The notes under the pieces are model-generated. The model was not told where the DNA came from. It saw only the letters and a program-made list of their open reading frames with translations, and did not search any database. The translations under genes were made by a program, and so were the position numbers. 64,000 nucleotides of DNA, from positions 2,728,001 to 2,792,000 of the forward strand of contig NZ_CP071597.1 in the NCBI RefSeq assembly GCF_017357405.1. Direction: 5' to 3'. The stretch is from Halomontanus rarus (lineage in GTDB: Archaea > Halobacteriota > Halobacteria > Halobacteriales > Natrialbaceae). Shown here one piece after another: positions 7,951 to 41,155 of this stretch (its first letter is position 1; every line of letters begins with the position of its first letter).

Positions 7951-8035
7951 AGCGGGAGGCGTGTTACGAATCGAAATAATTCCTTCTATCTGTACTCAAT
8001 TTTCACTCGGTTCTCGGGCGGCCGCTGCCGGCTCC

Positions 8036-31565: not shown

Positions 31566-33104
31566 TCACTTGCCGGCCGTCAGCGCCCGCAGCGGCCCGT
31601 TCGACTCGTTGAAGTAGGCGACGCCGTCCGCCACTGCCAGCGACCCCGGAACGCCCGACGGAACGCTCGTGGACCACAGCGTCTCGCCGGTCTCCGTGTC
31701 GAACCCGTACAGCGTCCCCTGTTCGCTGTTGACGACGATCGCTCCGTTCGACCCCGAAGGCGGCCCGAGCACGCCGTCAGTCTCGCCGGACACCCACTCG
31801 AGGTTGCCGTTCGCGGCGTCGACCGAGACCATACGATAGTCGCCAGCGCGCTGTGCGTACACCGATCCGTTCCCGACGACGAGTCGCTCCTCGTGGAACG
31901 GGCCGGGCGCGAACCAGCGGGTGCGCCCTTCGGCCAAGTCGAGCGCGACCAATTGGGACTCGGTGAGCGCGAAGACGGTGTCGTGGGCGATGGCCGCGGC
32001 GCCGATCGGTTCCCCGGCGGAGACCGTCCATCGGACGGTCCCCGTCCCGGCGTCGATCGCGCGAAGCGGCTCGCCACCCGACACGACGACGCCGTCGGTG
32101 ACCGCCGGCGGCCCCGCCAGCGATCCGCCGGAATCCGCCGTCCAGTCCACCTCTCCCGAGGCCGCGTCGATCGCGTGGAGATCGCCGTGTGACGTGTACA
32201 CCCGTCCGTCGGCGACGGTAGGGGGCCCGTGCCAGATATCGCCGTCCGACGAGATGGTCCATCGAACGTCCCCGCTTTCGACCTCGACGGCACGGAAGTC
32301 CTCCGGCGTGCCGAACGCGACGACGTCCTCGCCGACCGCGAGGGGAGTGGTCCGAGCGGGGCCCTCGTGGACCCACTGTTCGCTGCCGTCCTCGACGGAC
32401 AGCGCCCGAACGTTACGGCCGGCGACGACAGTCCCGTCCGCGACGACCGGCCCCGACGAGCGGTAGGCGTACTCGACTTCCGAAACGGTCCAGGCCGACG
32501 TCGGTTCGGAGCGGGGCGCCTCCGTGCCCGGATTGTGAGCGCTCGCACCCGGATCGTACGCGACACCGGGCCACGCGTTCCCGCCGTCGATGGCGGACCG
32601 ATCCGACGGTGTCACGAGTCCGGGGTAATCTTCGGAGACCTCGACGTTCTCGAACGTCGCGTCGAAGCGAAACTCACCGTCCTCCGGGCGGTCGACGCCG
32701 TCCTCCCCGAAGAACTTCGGCCGGAACGAGAGGACGATCTCGCGCTCGAGTCCGGACGCCAGGAGTACGGGCCGTTTGCGGTCGATCGACCCCTCCGCTT
32801 CCGTGTGAGACAACGCCACGACGAGGTTGGCTTGCCGGGCTGCTTCCCCGGCGTTCTCGACGGTCACGGTAACTTCGACCGTCCGTTCGCCGGCCACGTG
32901 TTCGATCCCGTTCACCTGTAATGGTCCACTATAGCTGGACTCGTCGGGAGTCGTGACGTCGTCGGACGACTCGGAATCGTCGGGAGATTCGGACTCGTCG
33001 GAAGAGGCGAGACGGCCCAGACAGCCCGCCATTCCTCCGAACGAGACGACGGTTCCGGTCGTGAGACACTGACGACGCGTCATCGATGGTCGATCGTTAG
33101 ACAT
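31566..33104 (-). CDS. PQQ-like beta-propeller repeat lipoprotein
   Basis: From ATG 33104 a 512-residue protein with Tat motif (R10-R11, MTRRQCLTTG) and lipobox GMAGC (Cys28), so a lipid-anchored surface protein. A Ser/Asp/Glu linker is followed by a CARDB-like beta domain (VEVTVTVENAGEAARQ) and about seven PQQ/BamB-type blades, each with the pattern AIDAASGEVDWTADSGG. This is a propeller of the BamB/quinoprotein-like group; no metal or PQQ ligand set can be assigned, so enzyme activity should not be assumed. Upstream ATG at 33143 gives a non-signal extension and is rejected. Confidence 0.9.
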   Translation of the reverse strand: MSNDRPSMTRRQCLTTGTVVSFGGMAGCLGRLASSDESESPDDSESSDDVTTPDESSYSGPLQVNGIEHVAGERTVEVTVTVENAGEAARQANLVVALSHTEAEGSIDRKRPVLLASGLEREIVLSFRPKFFGEDGVDRPEDGEFRFDATFENVEVSEDYPGLVTPSDRSAIDGGNAWPGVAYDPGASAHNPGTEAPRSEPTSAWTVSEVEYAYRSSGPVVADGTVVAGRNVRALSVEDGSEQWVHEGPARTTPLAVGEDVVAFGTPEDFRAVEVESGDVRWTISSDGDIWHGPPTVADGRVYTSHGDLHAIDAASGEVDWTADSGGSLAGPPAVTDGVVVSGGEPLRAIDAGTGTVRWTVSAGEPIGAAAIAHDTVFALTESQLVALDLAEGRTRWFAPGPFHEERLVVGNGSVYAQRAGDYRMVSVDAANGNLEWVSGETDGVLGPPSGSNGAIVVNSEQGTLYGFDTETGETLWSTSVPSGVPGSLAVADGVAYFNESNGPLRALTAGK

Positions 33105-33228
33105 GAAATATGGTTTTAATGTACAGTAAATAAATCTATACATCTGTCCTATTGTTTCTCGAGACCGTGTTCGTCGACCCTCGCTCGCTCGCTCGAGTGA
33201 GACGCTTCATCCGCCGGTACGACCGAGG

Positions 33229-33537
33229 TTGTGCCGTCTCCTGAACTGTCGACACCGCCTGAATTCACCGTTTCGCGAGAGCGGATTCCCACCTCGGAAG
33301 CTCGACGCCGGAGGGCAACTCTCGGTCTTTTCGCTCCTCGTGAACGTCATCGCTGGAATCGACTATGGGGACGTGAGTGGCGCTGATCTCGGGTCGAATG
33401 GTCTGACCGTACCGGAAGTCAAGCACCGAACGAAACGCGGGAAAACCTACGTTTTCAAAGCGGACAAATCGGACGAAGTCGAACTCAAGGAGATGGTGAA
33501 TTCCGTCCAAAGCCGGATCACCACCGTGTGGCTGTGA
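33229..33537 (+). pseudogene. Fragment resembling the end of a bacterial-PH-like domain protein
   Basis: The last ~65 residues (from IAGIDYGDVSGADLGSNG to SVQSRITTVWL) look like the final strands and C-terminal helix of a PH-like (bPH) domain: a Gly-turn, KTYVFKADKSDEVELKEMV, then the closing helix. The first ~35 residues are unlike a protein N-terminus and no membrane or start signal precedes, so the gene seems truncated at its 5' end. Similarity is judged from pattern only. Ends exactly where direct repeat A begins. Confidence 0.4.
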
Positions 33538-33651
33538 GAGGTGTTAGAAGAGAAATTGTAGATCAGGATAGTTGGGGCGAAAGCGCGATGAACCCCATTC
33601 ACGGTCTATCCTACGGCCTCTCGCCGGGCTATAGAATTCCTCTTCTGTGAG
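33534..33651 (+). repeat. Diverged direct repeat, copy A
   Basis: About 118 bp that align with 34617-34727 at roughly three positions in four, beginning GTGAGAGGTGTTAGAAG here and GTGAGAGGGGTTAGAAG there, with shared blocks GATGAA, CTACGGC-TCTCG and TCTTC-GTGAG. Weaker similarity continues beyond, up to the ATG of the 34774 gene in copy B. The two copies bracket the Mrr-type gene. Confidence 0.75.
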
Positions 33652-33690
33652 TTTGATCGTCGACTCTCTAGTTCGTATTGGTTACTCCCT

Positions 33691-34503
33691 TCACGCGTTT
33701 AACCTATCGGATCGTCGAATAAAATAGAACGGAACGGTTAGATATGGGACGAAGAATGCTCCAGCAACCCACCACTTCGGATTTGGATACCACGATACTC
33801 GCGATCGCTGGATTAGCAGTATATCTTTATAGATTCCCGCTGCGGTTATTCCACCTGCGACAACCGCTACTGCTGTCAATATTTGGCTGACAATCGAATC
33901 CGATGGAACTTCAACGAAACTGACCAGTAGAATAGCTATCGTACTGGGAATCGCTCCCAAAATCACCAATCCGATCCAGAGATACTCTTCATCACTTTCA
34001 TTTTGTCGGTTTTGCCTTTCCCGCGCGCACTGATTCTTCGATCCTGTACGTTGCGGTGATGTACTATCGGAATGTTTGGCTACTAAATCGAGCGCATCGG
34101 CTTGCAAAACCATCTCAACAAGGTCATCACCGCCGATCAATTTCACGTTCAGCGTCTTCGAGCGTTCTTGAGCGTCCAACGTGAATCCACTTGTCGTCAC
34201 AACTACCGCGGCGTCAGCATCGAATTGATCGCGGAGACTTGCGTATTCGGAAATCTTCGGTCCACCAACGTTGTTACCCTCTTGATACCGCTTTGCCTGA
34301 ATTGCGTGTCGTTGATGATAAGGAGCCTCTTTCTCCGCGAGAACATCGAGACTCTTGTCCCGGGATTGTTGACTGACCACCGTGTTCCACCCGTTGCGGG
34401 ACCAGAGGTCAGCGACGAAGTGCTCAAATTTCTCGTCGTCCATCGCCTGCAAGTGACGCTTGACCGTCACATTAGGTGGCGATGGGCCACTCAAATCAGC
34501 CAT
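33691..34503 (-). CDS. Membrane-anchored Mrr-type restriction endonuclease-like protein
   Basis: A 270-residue protein with an N-terminal PD-(D/E)XK nuclease of the Mrr_cat type: LQAMDDEKFEHFVADLWSRNGW, then the active-site Asp in KSLDVLAEKEA (~residue 52) and the QAK variant in HAIQAKRYQEGN (~68-70), then DAAVVVTTSGFT. After a polar linker the last ~105 residues contain three hydrophobic segments and an aromatic end. Mrr nucleases cut modified DNA or act in defence; a membrane tail suggests sensing at the envelope. AT-rich, and flanked by the direct repeats A and B, which points to acquisition. An AT-rich promoter stretch precedes ATG 34503. Confidence 0.82.
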   Translation of the reverse strand: MADLSGPSPPNVTVKRHLQAMDDEKFEHFVADLWSRNGWNTVVSQQSRDKSLDVLAEKEAPYHQRHAIQAKRYQEGNNVGGPKISEYASLRDQFDADAAVVVTTSGFTLDAQERSKTLNVKLIGGDDLVEMVLQADALDLVAKHSDSTSPQRTGSKNQCARERQNRQNESDEEYLWIGLVILGAIPSTIAILLVSFVEVPSDSIVSQILTAVAVVAGGITAAGIYKDILLIQRSRVSWYPNPKWWVAGAFFVPYLTVPFYFIRRSDRLNA

Positions 34504-34616
34504 ACAGCGGATGACACTACAATTTACTTAAAATATCGGTTATGATATGAACACGTACATCTCGTGAGGAATCAAACGATATCCTTTCTATAAGATTATC
34601 ACGGCATAGCAAGACC

Positions 34617-34727
34617 GTGAGAGGGGTTAGAAGGAAAGCTGGAGATTAGGGTAATTGGACGGAAGTACGATGAAAACGATTCACTCTACGGCTTCTCGTC
34701 GGAGCCATAGACCGTCTCTTCCGTGAG
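34617..34727 (+). repeat. Diverged direct repeat, copy B
   Basis: Partner of 33534-33651 in the same orientation. It ends about 45 bp before the start of the 34774 gene and so may include that gene's promoter; copy A then looks like the promoter of a lost paralogue. Confidence 0.75.
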
Positions 34728-34773
34728 CACGCTTTACCGTCAGTTCTATCGTTTGTACACTCTGACTGATACT

Positions 34774-35151
34774 ATGGTACAAGAGACAGACCTTGACCGT
34801 GATCGGGATGCGATCCGCGAACTTCTCTACCGACTTCGTCCGGGTGACGAAGTTGCCGTGGCGACCAACGCAAGCTGGAGTGGGGGACGTGACGGGACGC
34901 GGAAAATGCGGATCGAAACAGTGACCCTCGAAACGTCACCCGCAGACGGTGAAGAGTACTATCGGATCTACGGGAAGGGGAAGAGACAACGCCAACAGGA
35001 AGAGAGCGGGAGTTACGTTTTGATGCCCGAGAAGCCGTCGGGAAAAGGGAATCATCCCGCTCCGGAAGGCTATCACCGTACCCCCAACTCGGATGCCGAG
35101 TATCAGGAAACCACCGGTGGTGCGATCACGGGGATCGAAGTGAGTCGGTAG
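34774..35151 (+). CDS. Hypothetical protein
   Basis: A 125-residue soluble protein from ATG 34774 (MVQETDLDRDRDAIRELLYRL). It begins with a short helix, then a beta-rich region (DEVAVATNAS ... MRIETVTLETSP ... EEYYRIYGKGKRQ) and a Gly/Pro/His-rich end. Composition is haloarchaeal, and the frame shows coding-type codon use. An upstream start at 34723 lies in repeat B and is rejected. No family recognised; being in an accessory region it may be a mobile-element gene. Confidence 0.55.
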   Translation: MVQETDLDRDRDAIRELLYRLRPGDEVAVATNASWSGGRDGTRKMRIETVTLETSPADGEEYYRIYGKGKRQRQQEESGSYVLMPEKPSGKGNHPAPEGYHRTPNSDAEYQETTGGAITGIEVSR

Positions 35152-35510
35152 TCACTCACTCGATCACATTCCGATCTTCTTGAGCGGATCATCCACTTCA
35201 CCGTAGATTGGACCAGTCGCGTGAATCCGACTCCGGTCGAGCGCGCCCCAGATTCTTCGACTGGGATACCTCGGTTATCCCGCGAGCCAATTACGACAAC
35301 CGATCGAACATCCGCGGTACACACATCCAACACGCCGACGTTCATCTCTACGGATGGGTCTTTGTTAAGTTCACAACTCCTGTGGATATATAGGAACGCC
35401 CGGCCGCTCTGGGGTGCGCCCGTCTCCCGGCTTAAATCTTTCCGGAATCTTCGGGGGCTGTACCGTCGAAACCTACCGTTGTACGGTCAATGTATATCGT
35501 TTGGAGAAGG
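35152..35510. other. Intergenic region left of the integrated element
   Basis: No convincing gene. A minus-strand frame at 35103-35345 is discussed among rejected items. The stretch near 35420-35450 (CTCCCGGCTTAAAT) faintly recalls the tRNA-Phe 3' end and could be an older scar. Confidence 0.3.
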
Positions 35511-35666
35511 ATGCCGGCTCCCGGATTTGTGAACTACGCCTGAGAACCTGCTCGCTTCGCTCGCAGAACCTCTGTCTAATTCAAATCAGCTCGGACAGAT
35601 TTCTGCTGCTCGCGGAATTGCTCGCAGCAGAAATGCCGCCTCCCGTATTTGAACCAGGGGCAGCTC
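35511..35666. repeat. Left attachment-type repeat (attL) with tRNA-Phe 3' fragments
   Basis: About 156 bp nearly identical to 39061-39216 in the same orientation. Its right end (35634-35665) matches the 3' third of tRNA-Phe with three mismatches; its left end (35511-35535) is a second partial copy of the same tRNA end. Between them is a hairpin TCTGCTGC...GCAGCAGA (35600-35630). Direct repeats carrying a tRNA 3' end beside an integrase gene mark site-specific integration. Confidence 0.8.
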
Positions 35667-35725
35667 ATTGAAATAAATGCGCTAAGCCACTCTATCCCGC
35701 GTCAATGGCGTTTCAGTGAACGTCA

Positions 35726-36792
35726 ATGACGAAGAACAAACTCGAACCTATTTCGCCTACTGAGGCGAAGGAGATGTACCTCAACGCGAGGAAGCAAGAA
35801 GTATCGCAAAGTACTCTCGATGGCTATCATTACCGGCTCAAGCACTTCATCCGTTGGTGCAGGGAAGTAGAGGGACTCGAGAACATGAATACTCTTTCCG
35901 GCCGAGACCTACAGAGATACAAAACATGGCGACGAGACGATGGCGATCTGAAGCCGATAAGCCTTGAAGGCCAACTCGACGCGCTACGAATCTTCATCCG
36001 CTGGTGCGGATCTATTGATGCAGTCGAACAGGATCTTCACGAGAAATTCGAAGCGCTGATGCCGAAACTCAGTAAGAACGACGAGCAGAGTGAGGCAGTT
36101 CTCGATAGTGAAGAAGCAGAGCTCCTACTCGAGTATCAATGTCGATTCGAGTATGCCTGTCGCGCTCACGTTATCATGGAGATCTTATGGCATACCAGAG
36201 TTCGACTCGGAGCACTACACTCGCTGGACGTTGAGGACTTCGACTCGGAGCACTACACTCGCTGGACGTTGAGGACTTCGACGAGGAGCATGAACGACTC
36301 GAATTCACTCACCGGCCTGATGAGGAGACGCCTCTCAAGAATGGACAAGAAGGAGAGCGCATGATCGCGCTCAACGCTGAAGTTTGCCGAGTCATCGAGG
36401 ATTGGAGAGATCATCATCGTCATGACGTAGAGGACGAATATGGCCGTGAGCCGCTTCTCACGAGCCGCAACGGGCGCATGAATCGGGCGAGCATTCGAGA
36501 TGCCATTTATCGAGTCACTCGACCCTGCTACTACGCCAACGAGTGCCCAAAGGGACGTGATCTAGATGAGTGTGAAGCCGGGAGATACCCGCACTACTCG
36601 AAGTGCCCAGCGAACGTCTCACCTCATGCTATCCGGCGTGGATCGATAACGCATTTCCTCTCCGAAGACGTGCCCGAGAAAGTCGTGAGTGATCGGATGA
36701 ACGTCGGGCAGGAAGTCCTTGACAAGCACTACGACAAGCGGACTGAAGAACAGAAAGTCGAACAGCGACGACCCTATCTAAGCGATCTCTTA
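35726..36792 (+). pseudogene. Tyrosine integrase disrupted by a 38-bp tandem duplication
   Basis: The first part (35726-36250) gives a SAM-like core-binding domain (QSTLDGYHYRLKHFIRWCRE) and the start of the catalytic domain with Arg in HTRVRLGALHSLDVEDFD. At 36201-36276 a 38-bp unit is present twice and throws the frame. Removing one unit restores an unbroken reading: VEDFDEEHERLEFTHRP ... running into MIALNAEVCRVIEDW, then HAIRRGSITHFL (HxxR) and the tyrosine in LDKHYDKRTEEQK. All of R, HxxR and Y are then present, as in haloarchaeal XerC/D-like integrases. The family normally ends shortly after RRPYLSDLL; here the frame runs on to 37371 through AT-rich DNA. Sits 60 bp inside attL. Confidence 0.85.
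36201..36276 (+). repeat. Exact 38-bp tandem duplication in the integrase gene
   Basis: Unit 1 is 36201-36238 and unit 2 36239-36276, identical base for base, starting TTCGACTCGGAGCACTACAC and ending TTGAGGAC. As 38 is not a multiple of three, the duplication shifts the frame; loss of one unit would restore the integrase. Confidence 0.97.
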
Positions 36793-37112
36793 TTCGTCGC
36801 CTCTCGGATGCTCTCTTTTGTTCTGAGAGTCCATCTACAGCTGTTGAGGATGCTCTGGACAATTGTAAGAGCTTCTATCGGACGCTATCCTGACTGGCTG
36901 GAGAAACCGTGCTCGCGGCTCTGGAGATTTTGCTTCTCAAACGTCGCCAATGATGCTCGAATCTGTGACGAACTGAACTCAATTCATCGTAGAATTAATC
37001 TCGATTGCTCAGAAGCAGCCCTTTTCAATCATATTCCTCCCAGGAACACATGCTTGATAGTCATGTATGCGTGGCAATTGACTGATACGGCTAGCACATC
37101 TAAAACATATCA
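36793..37112. other. AT-rich stretch inside the element
   Basis: No gene recognised. The integrase frame stays open here without family similarity, and composition is lower in GC than anywhere nearby. Possibly the relic of element genes between integrase and the DUF8139-like gene. Confidence 0.4.
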
Positions 37113-37371
37113 ATGGAGGATATCCCACAACCATCTACTGATCCATATTCTGCCGGCGACCGGGTACAAGTCTATCTTGGATTTGGCGGTCCTGACGCCC
37201 AATATCATGGCGTGGTCTGTGAGATTGTTGAAGTTATTACGGATAATCTCAGTGCCGAAACCGGTCGAACCACCGATGCATACTCATATACTCTTCGAGA
37301 CCTCGACACAAACGAAGAACCTCATTTTGTTTCGTCACGACGATTTAGTGCCAGTTGAGAGTACTCAGTAA
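37113..37371 (+). pseudogene. Frameshifted small haloarchaeal protein (DUF8139-like)
   Basis: ATG 37113 opens MEDIPQPSTDPYSAGDRVQV and continues through HGVVCEIVEVITDNLSAETG to YSYTLRDLDTNEE, a small family I know from many haloarchaea (recalled as DUF8139). Its expected end, FRHDDLVPVES, is present but in the other frame (37330-37371), so one base was gained or lost near 37315-37325. In the current frame the protein ends early with PHFVSSRRFSAS. Function of the family is unknown. Confidence 0.6.
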
Positions 37372-37550
37372 TTCCACTCCGAACGGATTTGAACTAGACG
37401 AGTCGCAGTCCGGGAGCGCAGCGACGCGAGCACCCGGACCGTCTCGGCGTGGTTCGAAGCCGGGAGGCGACATTCGGGTCGGAAACCCCCGAGGAACCAG
37501 TCCAAACAGCTTGGGCCACCATTTTTCTGGTTTGTGATCGTACTGGACGT

Positions 37551-38639
37551 ATGGCCGCTTTTGCTGACCGGGAGGATAACCGACTACTCTGGGTCGTAGT
37601 CGGTGCCCTGATAGCGGTCCTGATCGGGTTTGCACTTCTCACGTACGTCGGTTCGCTCGTGTCGGCCATCTTTCTCTACTACGCGACGCGGCCGATACAC
37701 CGCAGGATCGACCGCCACGTCGATCACTCGGATCTCGCGGTAACGGTTACGGTTTTCGTCGTCGTCCTTCCAATGGCGTTCGTCGCCGGGTACGCGCTGT
37801 TCCTGATCGCCCAGGAGCTCGACCGCGTCCTCTCCGGTGGCGCCCTCGAGGCGGTACGACCGTACGCCCAACCGTACTTACGACTCGCCCGGGCCGGGCA
37901 ACTCCAGCAGCTTCAGGAAGCGATCACGGGCGCCAGCGGGGGAGGAGGATCCACGCTGCGGACGGTGATGGAGAACGCGTTGGGGAGCGTTGCGAGCGCC
38001 GCCGCGATCGCGTTCAGTTTCGTCGCGCAGGTGTTCCTGCTGACCGTGTTTCTCTTTTACCTTCTCCGGGACGGCCACAGTATCAGGGAGTGGTTCTATC
38101 GGAGCATCGACTACGACGACCGAATCGTCGAGTTCGTCGACGCCGTCGACGAGGAGCTGGAGATCGTCTTCTTCAACAACCTCGTGCTGGTCGTGCTCAC
38201 GGCGATCCAGGCCGCTGTCATCTACCTGGCGATGAACCTGCTCGTTCCCGGCGGAACGATCGTCGGAACGCCGGTGCTGCTGGGGACGCTCGTCGGGATC
38301 GGCATGATCATCCCGATCGTCGGGATGAAAATCGTCTACGTGCCGTACGCGGCGTATCTCGCCCTCGTGGCGGCGACGACCGGGACGCCGACCTGGCACC
38401 CGATCGTGTTCCTCGCCGTGTCGGCGGTCGTGGTCGATACCATTCCCGATATCTTCATCCGCACGTACCTCTCGGCGCGGGGGTCGCTCCACATGGGTCT
38501 CGTCCTCCTCGGATACGTGCTCGGGACGATGGCGTTCGGCTGGTACGGATTGTTCCTGGGGCCGATCATCGTGGTCGTCACGTACCAGTTCGCTCATACG
38601 GTGTTCCCGCGGCTCGCGACGTCGTACCTCGAAGAGTGA
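37551..38639 (+). CDS. AI-2E family transporter (PerM/DUF20-like permease)
   Basis: A 362-residue protein with about eight helices. Family landmarks: a first helix pair ending YYATRPIHRRIDRH, a soluble stretch, then LTVFLFYLLRDGHSIREWF, the central GIGMIIPIVGMKIVYVP and the end FGWYGLFLGPIIVVVTYQFA. Family members export the quorum signal AI-2, indole or act as sodium/proton antiporters; which applies here is open. ATG 37551 is chosen because the upstream frame (from 37449) is basic and unlike the family. It is GC-rich and intact, unlike the rest of the element, so it may be recently acquired cargo. Confidence 0.88.
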   Translation: MAAFADREDNRLLWVVVGALIAVLIGFALLTYVGSLVSAIFLYYATRPIHRRIDRHVDHSDLAVTVTVFVVVLPMAFVAGYALFLIAQELDRVLSGGALEAVRPYAQPYLRLARAGQLQQLQEAITGASGGGGSTLRTVMENALGSVASAAAIAFSFVAQVFLLTVFLFYLLRDGHSIREWFYRSIDYDDRIVEFVDAVDEELEIVFFNNLVLVVLTAIQAAVIYLAMNLLVPGGTIVGTPVLLGTLVGIGMIIPIVGMKIVYVPYAAYLALVAATTGTPTWHPIVFLAVSAVVVDTIPDIFIRTYLSARGSLHMGLVLLGYVLGTMAFGWYGLFLGPIIVVVTYQFAHTVFPRLATSYLEE

Positions 38640-39060
38640 TCAGTCCGGTCGGGGATTCGGGAGCGCCGGTTCCGCTGCGGGCGAGACGATGAGCGGAGCG
38701 AATCGTCCGTGAGCAGCAGAAGTGGAATCCTGCCTATTCAACTTACTATTAAATTCCACTTTGGTTTGGAGAAGAGGAAAACGTATACTTTTACTCGTTG
38801 ATGCTGAGCCATGATCTCAAAGCTACCGGATTTGGCGGCTACAGGTCGCGTTCCTTCTGACTAAGCGCCAGTGCCAGTTGACAAACGATTCTCGCCTTAT
38901 GAGTCCTAAGATATTTTACCATTCCGGAGGATCGAATGCCTGTAAACGCCAGTTGAGGCCGAGGCGCGAGCGGAACCCGAATCCAATGATCCGGTGGAAA
39001 TCGTCGACGCGCGGGGCAAATCCAACGGTGTCGGTCGATTGCGGATCGCGCGGAAAAGGA
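38640..39060. other. Gene-free right part of the element with a coding relic
   Basis: No complete gene. From 38946 to about 39090 the frame PVEAEARAEPESNDPVEIV followed by DARGKSNGVGRLRIARKR has haloarchaeal coding character but begins after a stop and has no start, so it looks like the tail of a lost gene. 38720-38800 is AT-rich. Confidence 0.3.
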
Positions 39061-39216
39061 ATGCCGCCTCCCGGATTGTGAACTACGCCTGAGAACCTGC
39101 TCGCTTCGCTCGCAGAACCTCAGTCTAGTTCAAATCAGCTCGGATAGATCTCTGCTGCTCGCGGAATTGCTCGCAGCAGAAATGCCGCCTCCCGGATTTG
39201 AACCGGGGACAGCTCG
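39061..39216. repeat. Right attachment-type repeat (attR), overlapping tRNA-Phe
   Basis: Partner of 35511-35666. It starts with a partial tRNA-Phe 3' end at 39061-39085, contains the same hairpin TCTGCTGC...GCAGCAGA (39151-39180) and finishes within the intact tRNA-Phe gene at its anticodon arm. The distance to the left copy is about 3550 bp, taken as element length. Confidence 0.8.
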
Positions 39217-39256
39217 ATCTTCAGTCGAGTGCTCTCCCAGTCTGAGCTAAGGCGGC
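39183..39256 (-). tRNA. tRNA-Phe (anticodon GAA)
   Basis: Read on the minus strand: acceptor GCCGCCT pairs with AGGCGGC, discriminator A; the D-arm GCTCAGACTGGGAGAGC, the anticodon loop CTGAAGA (anticodon GAA, 39220-39222) and the T-arm CCGG-TTCAAAT-CCGG are all canonical. CCA is not encoded. The 3' half is duplicated at the left end of the integrated element. Confidence 0.95.
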
Positions 39257-39471
39257 TTACCCGAACTTCGGTCGATGGTACAAAAAAGCATTTCGAATGT
39301 CGACCGCCGTCTGACGGTGAGTAGTCACCCCCAACAGCGAACACGCAACTCGACTAACATCTCATTGGTCCGCTCACCACACGCTCAGTTAGAACATACA
39401 TCCGGCCGCCGTGTGTTGGATTTACGGATATTCAAGACACGCTTTTCCGCTCCGGTGAGTAATATCACGTT

Positions 39472-39918
39472 ATGGAAGCGCTTACCACGAGTGAGAAACC
39501 GGAGGATCTCACCGCAGACACGATCCTAGAACTTTTGGCCAACCGCCGCCGGCGCTACCTCCTGTACGCGCTTCGCGGCCACGACGACCCGATCGAACTC
39601 TCGGAACTGGCCGAACAGGTCGCCGGCTGGGAACACGACGTCCCGCCGGCCGACGTCGCGAAAAACGAATACAAGAGCGTCTACGTCTCTTCCGTGCAGT
39701 GTCACGTTCCGAAACTCGACGACGCCGGCGTGGTCGACCACGACGAGGACAACCACACCGTCATCCTCTCGGAGAACTTCACCCAACTCGAGCCCTACCT
39801 CCAGCTGGTGGTCCTCGACGAGCCGAAGAACTCGACGCTCCACACGGCGCTTCACGGAGAGTCCAGCGAGGGACTCATCGGCCAGATCCGCGAGAACGTC
39901 TCCCGTCTCAAGCCGTGA
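39472..39918 (+). CDS. Winged-helix DNA-binding protein (DUF7344-like)
   Basis: A 148-residue protein. LTADTILELLANRRRRYLLY begins a helix-turn-helix domain, followed by DDPIELSELAEQVAGWE and SVYVSSVQCHVPKLDDAGVV with a beta wing DHDEDNHTVILS. This is the small haloarchaeal regulator type recalled as DUF7344. A C-terminal helix may dimerise. It stands alone between the two tRNA genes. A TATA-like stretch is not obvious; the ATG at 39472 is preceded by AATATCACGTT. Confidence 0.85.
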   Translation: MEALTTSEKPEDLTADTILELLANRRRRYLLYALRGHDDPIELSELAEQVAGWEHDVPPADVAKNEYKSVYVSSVQCHVPKLDDAGVVDHDEDNHTVILSENFTQLEPYLQLVVLDEPKNSTLHTALHGESSEGLIGQIRENVSRLKP

Positions 39919-40376
39919 CTAGTGCGGCCAAGCACGAGCTATCGTCGCATAGTCTCTGATTAGCGGTCCCGCTCACTCGTGATTGCGTCCGCTGTTCTTC
40001 GATTGTCCGTATTGGTCCCGCGGTGCGGATTCTCCGGTCGGTGTGAACCGTTTCAGCTGTTACTGTAATGGGTGCTCGTGTCGCTCTTCGAGCGGTGACC
40101 GAATGCTAACGACACAGCCGGTATATCCATCGTCTGTTTCTATCGGTTTCATCTCGAGTAGAGAACGCATACAGTCTGCCCACACTCCTCGTCGCTCTCG
40201 GTTTCCGATTTTCGGTCGCCGGCCGTCTCGAGTCTCCCGGCTGCTCGAGCGGGTGACAGTGCTGTCGCTCACGAGTGATTCGTTGCAGGAATCGGGTCGA
40301 GCGGGATCGAACAACGTCGAGTGGTTCTCACTTCGTTGTGCGCGTCTCGTCTCGTTCGACCTGCTCTCGGATACAT
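39919..40376. other. Gene-free stretch with tRNA-Val-like scars
   Basis: No convincing gene on either strand. 40270-40317 is a degenerate copy of the tRNA-Val 3' end (about 22 of 28 positions over its core). The rest holds frames with mixed composition only, probably decayed element DNA. Confidence 0.4.
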
Positions 40377-40434
40377 TTCTGTGACTCACTTTCTCGTTCG
40401 TTCGAAAAATGGGTTCGGGCGGGTTCGAACCACG
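40377..40434. repeat. Partial copy of the tRNA-Val 3' end and flank
   Basis: Matches 40480-40540, the 3' end of tRNA-Val plus about 38 bp of flank: both read CTGT-ACTCACT, then TCTCGTTCGT and GGGCGGGTTCGAACCAC. Such end fragments are left by site-specific integration at tRNA genes. Confidence 0.7.
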
Positions 40435-40479
40435 GTCGCAGTGAAGCAGCTCCCTGATTGGAACCGCCCTCACGTACGT

Positions 40480-40540
40480 CTCTGTAACTCACTGTCGTTC
40501 TCGTTCGTCCCAGAAATGGGCTCGGGCGGGTTCGAACCAC
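40480..40540. repeat. tRNA-Val-end repeat, copy at the intact gene
   Basis: Partner of 40377-40434; its last 24 bp are the T-arm and acceptor of the intact tRNA-Val. Confidence 0.7.
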
Positions 40541-40590
40541 CGACCTCGGCCTTGTAAAGGCCGCGTCATAACCAGCTAGACCACGAGCCC
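40517..40590 (-). tRNA. tRNA-Val (anticodon TAC)
   Basis: On the minus strand acceptor GGGCTCG pairs with CGAGCCC, discriminator A; the anticodon stem CGGCC/GGCCG encloses loop TTTACAA, giving anticodon TAC (Val, GTA); the T-arm is GGTGG-TTCGAAC-CCGCC with the usual TTCGA. CCA is not encoded. Confidence 0.95.
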
Positions 40591-40648
40591 GTATTCGAAC
40601 GAAACCGGTCCGTCCGAATAACCTTTACCTTCTCGAGTCACACGTCCG

Positions 40649-41155
40649 ATGTACCCGATGGTACGCGTCGAACGGGCGTGGAAACTGCTTCTCGTCCTCG
40701 CAGTCGTCTCGCTCGTCGGAGTCGTGCTCGTCGAAGCGAGCGTTCTCCCGGCTCCGTGGACCGACGACCGCGCCGAGGTTCGGATCGTCGACGACGACGG
40801 AACGACCAAAGCGGAGATCGACGTCTCAGTCGCGGACACCTACCGCGAGCGCTACACGGGACTGAGCGATCACGAGTCGCTCGAGTCCGGCGATGGAATG
40901 TTGTTCGTCCACTGGCGCGAGGGTGATCGAACGTACGTCATGCGAGACATGGACTTCGATATCGACATCGTCTTCGTCGCGAGCGACGGCGAGATCACGA
41001 CGATTCATCACGCGCGAGCGCCCGACCCGGACGAGGACGGCGGAGAACTCCAGTACTCCGGTCGGGCGAAGTGGGTACTCGAGGTGCCACGCGGCTATGC
41101 CAACGAGACGGGGATCGAGGTCGGCGACGAGCTGGTGATCGACGAGACGCGGTAG
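40649..41155 (+). CDS. DUF192 family protein, membrane-anchored
   Basis: A 168-residue protein with an N-terminal helix (about residues 10-30) and a DUF192 domain (COG1430): AEIDVSVADTYRERYTGLSD, then GDGMLFVHWREGDRTYVMRDMDFDIDIVFV and the end AKWVLEVPRGYANETGIEVGD. The domain is a small beta barrel of unknown biochemical role, often secreted. Two ATGs (40649 and 40658) are possible; the stretch AACCTTTACC at 40621-40630 is a plausible TATA region about 25 bp before the first. Confidence 0.88.
   Translation: MYPMVRVERAWKLLLVLAVVSLVGVVLVEASVLPAPWTDDRAEVRIVDDDGTTKAEIDVSVADTYRERYTGLSDHESLESGDGMLFVHWREGDRTYVMRDMDFDIDIVFVASDGEITTIHHARAPDPDEDGGELQYSGRAKWVLEVPRGYANETGIEVGDELVIDETR

What the first reader, a model, noticed from the sequence alone, without database searches (positions are those of the whole stretch)
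36201..36276. Exact 38-bp tandem duplication inactivates the element's integrase
Two identical 38-bp units break the frame in the catalytic domain. Removing one joins VEDFDEEHERLEFTHRP to MIALNAEVCRVIEDW and restores R...HxxR...Y. The sequence shows the lesion directly; that loss of one copy by slippage or recombination could switch mobility back on is inference. It could also simply be a recent fossil or an assembly error.
Basis: partly seen in the sequence, partly recalled or inferred. Interest (0 to 1): 0.78.

Follow-up and report, generated by a model that had tools for sequence, protein, structure and literature searches.

The report
Recently broken haloarchaeal integrase, decaying element
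A mobile DNA element sitting beside a tRNA-Phe gene in a salt-loving archaeon has an integrase gene that was recently broken by a 38-base tandem duplication, but further damage to the gene and its attachment site makes ordinary decay a better reading than a reversible mobility switch.

Summary
Two exact 38-bp copies lie at 36201-36238 and 36239-36276, followed by six bases of a third. They shift the frame of a tyrosine integrase gene just after its first catalytic arginine. No exact tandem copy overlaps the integrase in 79 related genome loci. The gene was under purifying selection over most of its divergence (dN/dS 0.04 to the nearest relative). The copies do not differ, so the duplication looks young.

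The reading as a single removable lesion is weakened. The residue two before the catalytic arginine is Arg, where 105 of 105 full-length relatives have Gly; in wider relatives the site varies, but Arg is in 0 of 106. The stop codon is lost and the frame runs 193 codons further. The attachment core differs from the tRNA-Phe gene at 3 of 34 bases, while three relatives match 34 of 34. The element spans 3.6 kb, against 6-9 kb in four relatives. Frame breaks recur in other integrases of the family.

Best reading: slippage-born pseudogene in a decaying tRNA-Phe element. Assembly error cannot be excluded. Interest is low.

The parts
36201..36238 (+). first copy of the 38-bp unit; holds the codon of catalytic Arg160 (36203-36205)
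36239..36276 (+). second, identical copy (period 38, not a multiple of 3)
36277..36282 (+). six bases repeating the start of the unit (microhomology at the far edge)
35726..36364 (+). N-terminal integrase frame (SAM-like domain and first catalytic Arg), 212 aa, out of frame after residue ~175
36235..37371 (+). downstream frame with the rest of the catalytic domain (K192, H288, R291, Y323); runs past the normal end
36197..36199 (+). codon 158: Arg where 105 of 105 full-length relatives have Gly
36790..36792 (+). sense codon at the place where L007, L008, L009 and L011 have their stop
35633..35666 (+). attL-like core: 3'-part of tRNA-Phe, 31 of 34 bases equal to the intact gene
39183..39256 (-). 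intact tRNA-Phe gene (GAA), other end of the element; core 39182-39215
35469..35666 (+). direct repeat with 39018-39215 (tRNA-Phe 3' flank plus core)
39018..39215 (+). second copy of that direct repeat, reaching into the intact tRNA-Phe gene

Best explanation
This is a tRNA-Phe-integrated mobile element of a haloarchaeon whose integrase gene has recently become a pseudogene. A replication or repair misalignment between short similar stretches 38 bp apart duplicated 38 bp in tandem and shifted the reading frame just after the first catalytic arginine. The gene also carries other damage, and the element is short and has a mutated attachment core. So the duplication is one step in ordinary decay of a trapped element, not a switch. 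Shown: the duplication, the frame break, the other changes, the relatives, and past purifying selection. Inferred: the slippage mechanism, the loss of activity, and the order of the lesions.
For: Exact copies with six bases of a third at the edge fit misalignment. No exact tandem place overlaps the integrase in any of 79 genome loci, nor occurs anywhere in 20 further loci fetched around broken or control integrases. dN/dS to L007 is 0.038 and 0.041 for the two pieces, so the gene was under constraint over most of the divergence. The window branch has 44 changes at 164 polarised third positions, while the copies differ at 0 of 38, which puts the duplication in roughly the last tenth of that branch. 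Further damage: Arg158, lost stop, attL core 31 of 34 against 34 of 34 in L007, L008 and L019. From attL core to the end of tRNA-Phe the element is 3.6 kb, against 8.8 (L007), 8.9 (L013), 8.1 (L015) and 6.3 kb (L014). Between 36790 and 39000 the window shares only short weak matches with the L007 cargo (at most 32 residues and 27 bits among those printed). Other family members are broken too: L204 (contig length equal to that given for the Natrialba asiatica protein P0122) lies in three frames; 6 of 13 picked loci lie in two or more frames.
Against: The low dN/dS and the kept catalytic residues would also fit a gene still used from time to time. Gly158 is not absolutely required: in wider relatives it is G 83, M 15, S 4, A 3, P 1 of 106. 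A C-terminal extension need not inactivate. The attL core mismatches may be tolerated; 11 other listed relatives have 26-33 of 34. None of the broken relatives checked shows an exact tandem copy as its cause, so this route of damage is not shown to be usual in the family. The sister species lacks this integrase at the locus, so no very close allele could be compared.
Confidence: 0.8

Rival explanations
1. Reversible lock: the tandem duplication is a metastable OFF state, and rare loss of one copy turns the integrase and mobility back on.
For: R160, K192, H288, R291 and Y323 are all present. The copies are exact, so contraction by slippage is plausible. Copy-number variants of a 57-bp tandem duplication were seen in rare reads in another organism (passages of PMC12817950).
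Against: Arg at 158 (in 0 of 105 close and 0 of 106 wider relatives), lost stop codon, mutated attL core, shortened element. No tandem copy in the integrase of 79 related loci.
Confidence: 0.06
2. Assembly or sequencing error: the genome has only one copy.
For: No reads can be seen here. Short tandem duplications are a known weak point of assemblies (general knowledge).
Against: The assembly is nearly closed: 5.17 Mb in 2 contigs, 99.95% complete. The other changes in the same gene point to decay whatever the copy number.
Confidence: 0.1
3. Split enzyme or regulator: the 212-aa N-terminal frame and the next frame (start codon at 36361) overlap by four bases and could be made as two coupled proteins.
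For: The start codon at 36361 overlaps the stop at 36362-36364.
Against: The codon of Lys192 (36337-36339) lies upstream of that start codon and beyond the point where the N-terminal frame goes wrong, so neither product would have it (my reading). The overlap follows from a Met-Ile pair in the protein, so chance explains it (my reading).
Confidence: 0.03

Closest known systems
Classical (non-suicidal) archaeal tyrosine integrases of haloarchaeal elements, such as the integrase in Natronolimnohabitans sp. A-GB9 (L007)
   Same: Family, domain order, tRNA-Phe 3'-end target, attachment core just upstream of the gene
   Different: L007 gene is one intact frame with a normal stop and a perfect 34-base core; the window's gene is broken by the duplication and altered elsewhere
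Suicidal SSV-type archaeal integrases (int(N)/int(C))
   Same: Gene present as two inactive pieces in an integrated element (passages of PMC8371274)
   Different: There the split is made by integration at an att site inside the gene; here by a local 38-bp duplication, with the att core outside the gene
Tandem-repeat phase variation
   Same: Short tandem copies that could in principle expand or contract
   Different: Only 2.2 copies, not found in related loci, and other damage in the same gene

Membership tests
Classical archaeal tyrosine integrase | N-terminal SAM-like domain | tested here: met
   PF02899 31.5 bits, cut-off 22.3, in the N-terminal piece
Classical archaeal tyrosine integrase | C-terminal Phage_integrase domain | tested here: inconclusive
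   The downstream piece alone scores 27.0 bits against a cut-off of 27.1; relatives such as P0003 carry PF00589
Classical archaeal tyrosine integrase | Catalytic R, K, H, R, Y | tested here: met
   All at the positions of 105 relatives, split over two frames
Classical archaeal tyrosine integrase | One open reading frame | tested here: not met
   Two frames
Classical archaeal tyrosine integrase | Attachment core outside the gene, at a tRNA 3' end | tested here: met
   Core 35633-35666 upstream of the start; intact tRNA-Phe at 39183-39256
Suicidal SSV-type integrase | Phage_integr_3 domain (PF16795) | tested here: not met
   Not among Pfam matches at E 0.01 of either piece
Suicidal SSV-type integrase | Gene split at an att site within it | tested here: not met
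   The break is at the 38-bp duplication; no tRNA is found there
Phase-variable tandem-repeat locus | Copy number varies within a population | not testable with these tools
   No reads; only one other genome of the genus is held
Phase-variable tandem-repeat locus | Repeat kept in relatives | tested here: not met
   An exact tandem place overlaps the integrase in 0 of 79 related loci
Pseudogene in a decaying element | Broken frame plus further unusual changes | tested here: met
Pseudogene in a decaying element | Relaxed selection | tested here: inconclusive
   dN/dS 0.04 over the whole divergence; 9 against 0 polarised amino-acid changes and 44 against 11 polarised third-position changes on the window and L007 branches

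The most novel reading that the evidence does not exclude
The duplication is a metastable lock on an element that still moves now and then: the gene contracts to one copy in rare cells, the extra changes are tolerated, and the gene is kept under selection through those rare active cells.
Probability: 0.05. Interest if true: 0.55.

Novelty: new member of a known kind. Interest (0 to 1): 0.16.

Why it matters
It gives a clean example of how an integrated archaeal element becomes trapped: an integrase under strong constraint for most of its history, then broken by a slippage-type duplication, with damage to the gene end and the attachment core. If one-copy molecules were ever found together with excision, it would be a slippage switch on integrase activity; the present evidence makes that unlikely.

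Tried and rejected
A hotspot or programmed frameshift near the first catalytic Arg was considered, because several truncated relatives of about 180-212 aa turned up. It was dropped: a frame shifted one way anywhere upstream can run into the stop hidden in a Met-Ile pair (my reading of the sequences), and breaks elsewhere also occur. No statistic was computed for clustering.

The absence of the duplication from full-length relatives is no evidence by itself, because they were chosen for an unbroken length; the DNA check of 79 loci is used instead.

Searches that led nowhere: plasmids and phages, no DNA match for 35630-36800; viral contigs, only 4 relatives of 37-41% identity; Rfam on 33000-41000, only the two tRNAs above a family cut-off; solved structures, one match, to the N-terminal domain (3nrw).

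The order of events that left the same tRNA-Phe flank at both ends of the element (93% identical) was not resolved.

Full report
Observation. The window holds two identical 38-bp units at 36201-36238 and 36239-36276, followed by six bases that repeat the start of the unit (36277-36282). A scan for two full exact copies at periods 15-200 finds no other place in the 64 kb; 1,227,156 bases of 79 related loci hold 11 such places, two with a period that is not a multiple of three, and none overlaps an integrase match. The finding is therefore real and well beyond chance.

What it breaks. The N-terminal frame 35726-36364 carries the SAM-like domain (PF02899, 31.5 bits) and the first catalytic Arg; the downstream frame, open from 36235, carries the rest of the catalytic domain (27.0 bits to PF00589, just under its cut-off of 27.1). 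tblastn of relatives places them in two frames that overlap in the duplicated part, so Arg160 is encoded once in each copy. R160, K192, H288, R291 and Y323 are the same in 105 of 105 relatives of at least 320 aa and are present in the window's pieces. That these residues are the catalytic set is recalled knowledge of tyrosine recombinases, not a call.

Relatives. One search found 537 proteins at E up to 0.001 among 575 candidates, of which the best 120 were listed. The closest, P0003, is 91% identical to the downstream piece; the N-terminal frame is 92% identical to it over 83% of its length. One search kept 79 genome loci, all with haloarchaeal titles except one labelled Nitriliruptoria; the closest is Natronolimnohabitans sp. 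A-GB9 (L007). Of 131 relatives of 325-352 aa, 121 end six residues after the EQRR motif; 8 lack the motif and 2 differ.

Timing. Against L007, dN/dS is 0.038 for the N-terminal piece and 0.041 for the downstream piece; synonymous distances are high (0.84 and 1.27), so the ratio is rough. Purifying selection therefore acted over most of the divergence. On the window branch 44 of 164 polarised third positions changed, while the two copies differ at 0 of 38. Under a simple clock, a duplication one tenth of the branch old would show no difference with probability 0.08, and one fifth old with 0.007. Gene conversion between the copies could also keep them equal, so this is an estimate only.

Other damage. 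Codon 158, two residues before the catalytic Arg, reads Arg where 105 of 105 relatives have Gly. In a wider set of 106 aligned matches of 31-99% identity the residue is Gly 83, Met 15, Ser 4, Ala 3, Pro 1, never Arg; 13 identical rows were dropped before that count. So the change is unusual and probably harmful, but not proven to be so. At 36790-36792 the window has a sense codon where L007, L008, L009 and L011 have their stop, and the frame runs on to 37371, across a separate 81-aa frame at 37113-37358. The attL-like core 35633-35666 equals the intact tRNA-Phe at 31 of 34 bases. The scan for this core looked at the 400 bases before position 8001 in loci of 9000 bases or more and lists 14 loci with 26 or more matches: L007, L008 and L019 have 34 of 34, the other 11 have 26-33.

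The element. Among 24 loci scanned for tRNAs, 5 have an intact tRNA-Phe gene downstream of the integrase on the other strand (L007, L011, L013, L014, L015); seven of the 24 are only 3.4 kb long and could not show it. Four of the five also have a core of 29 or more of 34 before the integrase. From the core to the end of tRNA-Phe the distance is 8.8, 8.9, 6.3 and 8.1 kb in L007, L013, L014 and L015, and 3.6 kb in the window. Between 36790 and 39000 the window shares only short weak matches with the L007 cargo. In the other genome of the genus, about 1.75 kb stands at the same place where the window has 5.9 kb, with its own partial copies of the tRNA-Phe flank, and no match to the integrase P0003 at E up to 10. 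The tRNA-Phe 3' side thus looks like a repeatedly used site (inference).

How it most likely arose. The six bases at the start of the unit recur directly after the second copy, which fits misalignment during replication or repair (inference). The copies then stayed because the element no longer needs the enzyme (inference). Frame breaks recur in this family. Of 13 loci picked for short open frames or stops, or as their neighbours, 6 lie in two or more frames and 3 have only the C-terminal part; two controls are intact. Among the 11 closest N-terminal matches, 2 have open frames under 300 aa: the window and the locus fetched as L204, which lies in three frames. None of the 20 loci fetched for this purpose holds an exact tandem copy, so the other breaks have other causes.

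Why not a switch. A one-lesion switch would need an otherwise sound gene and sites. Three further changes argue against that, though none is decisive alone, and no related locus shows the repeat. Precedent that tens-of-bases tandem copies vary within a population was read in passages of PMC12817950; it concerns promoters in an unrelated bacterium. Passages of PMC8371274 describe split integrases of integrated archaeal elements and their excision by an outside integrase. The window's genome has four further matches to each integrase piece; the two listed are 53-54% identical to the C-terminal piece and 41-45% to the N-terminal piece. Whether any could act on this element was not tested.

Verdict. 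Observation confirmed, interpretation partly supported. It is an ordinary though clear case of a recently inactivated integrase in a decaying tRNA-Phe element. Assembly error remains possible without reads.

Noticed in passing
35469-35666 and 39018-39215: The tRNA-Phe 3' flank is present at both ends of the element; the two share a hairpin that differs from that in the sister species and in L007 (93% identical over 128 bases). Simple integration would not leave the host flank on both sides; unexplained.
   Followed up: partly
37378-37474: Inverted, degenerate copy of the tRNA-Phe flank unit (22 nt 91% and 24 nt 88% complementary to 39123-39144 and 39181-39204) between the integrase and the AI-2E family transporter gene.
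   Followed up: partly
39073-39136: Near-palindromic unit of about 64 bases beside tRNA-Phe that also matches scattered places in other genomes of the family; in the window's own genome an 86-base query found only the two copies here. Its single-strand fold is only weakly better than shuffles (z -1.54).
   Followed up: partly
33534-33651 and 34617-34727: Direct repeats (71% identical) on either side of an Mrr-type restriction endonuclease gene (33691-34503, PF04471); similar DNA (80%) lies in a genome of another genus.
   Followed up: partly
   Followed up: partly
40384-40433 and 40491-40540: A tRNA-Val 3' fragment repeated next to the intact tRNA-Val gene (86% over 50 nt), a possible scar of another integration.
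   Followed up: no
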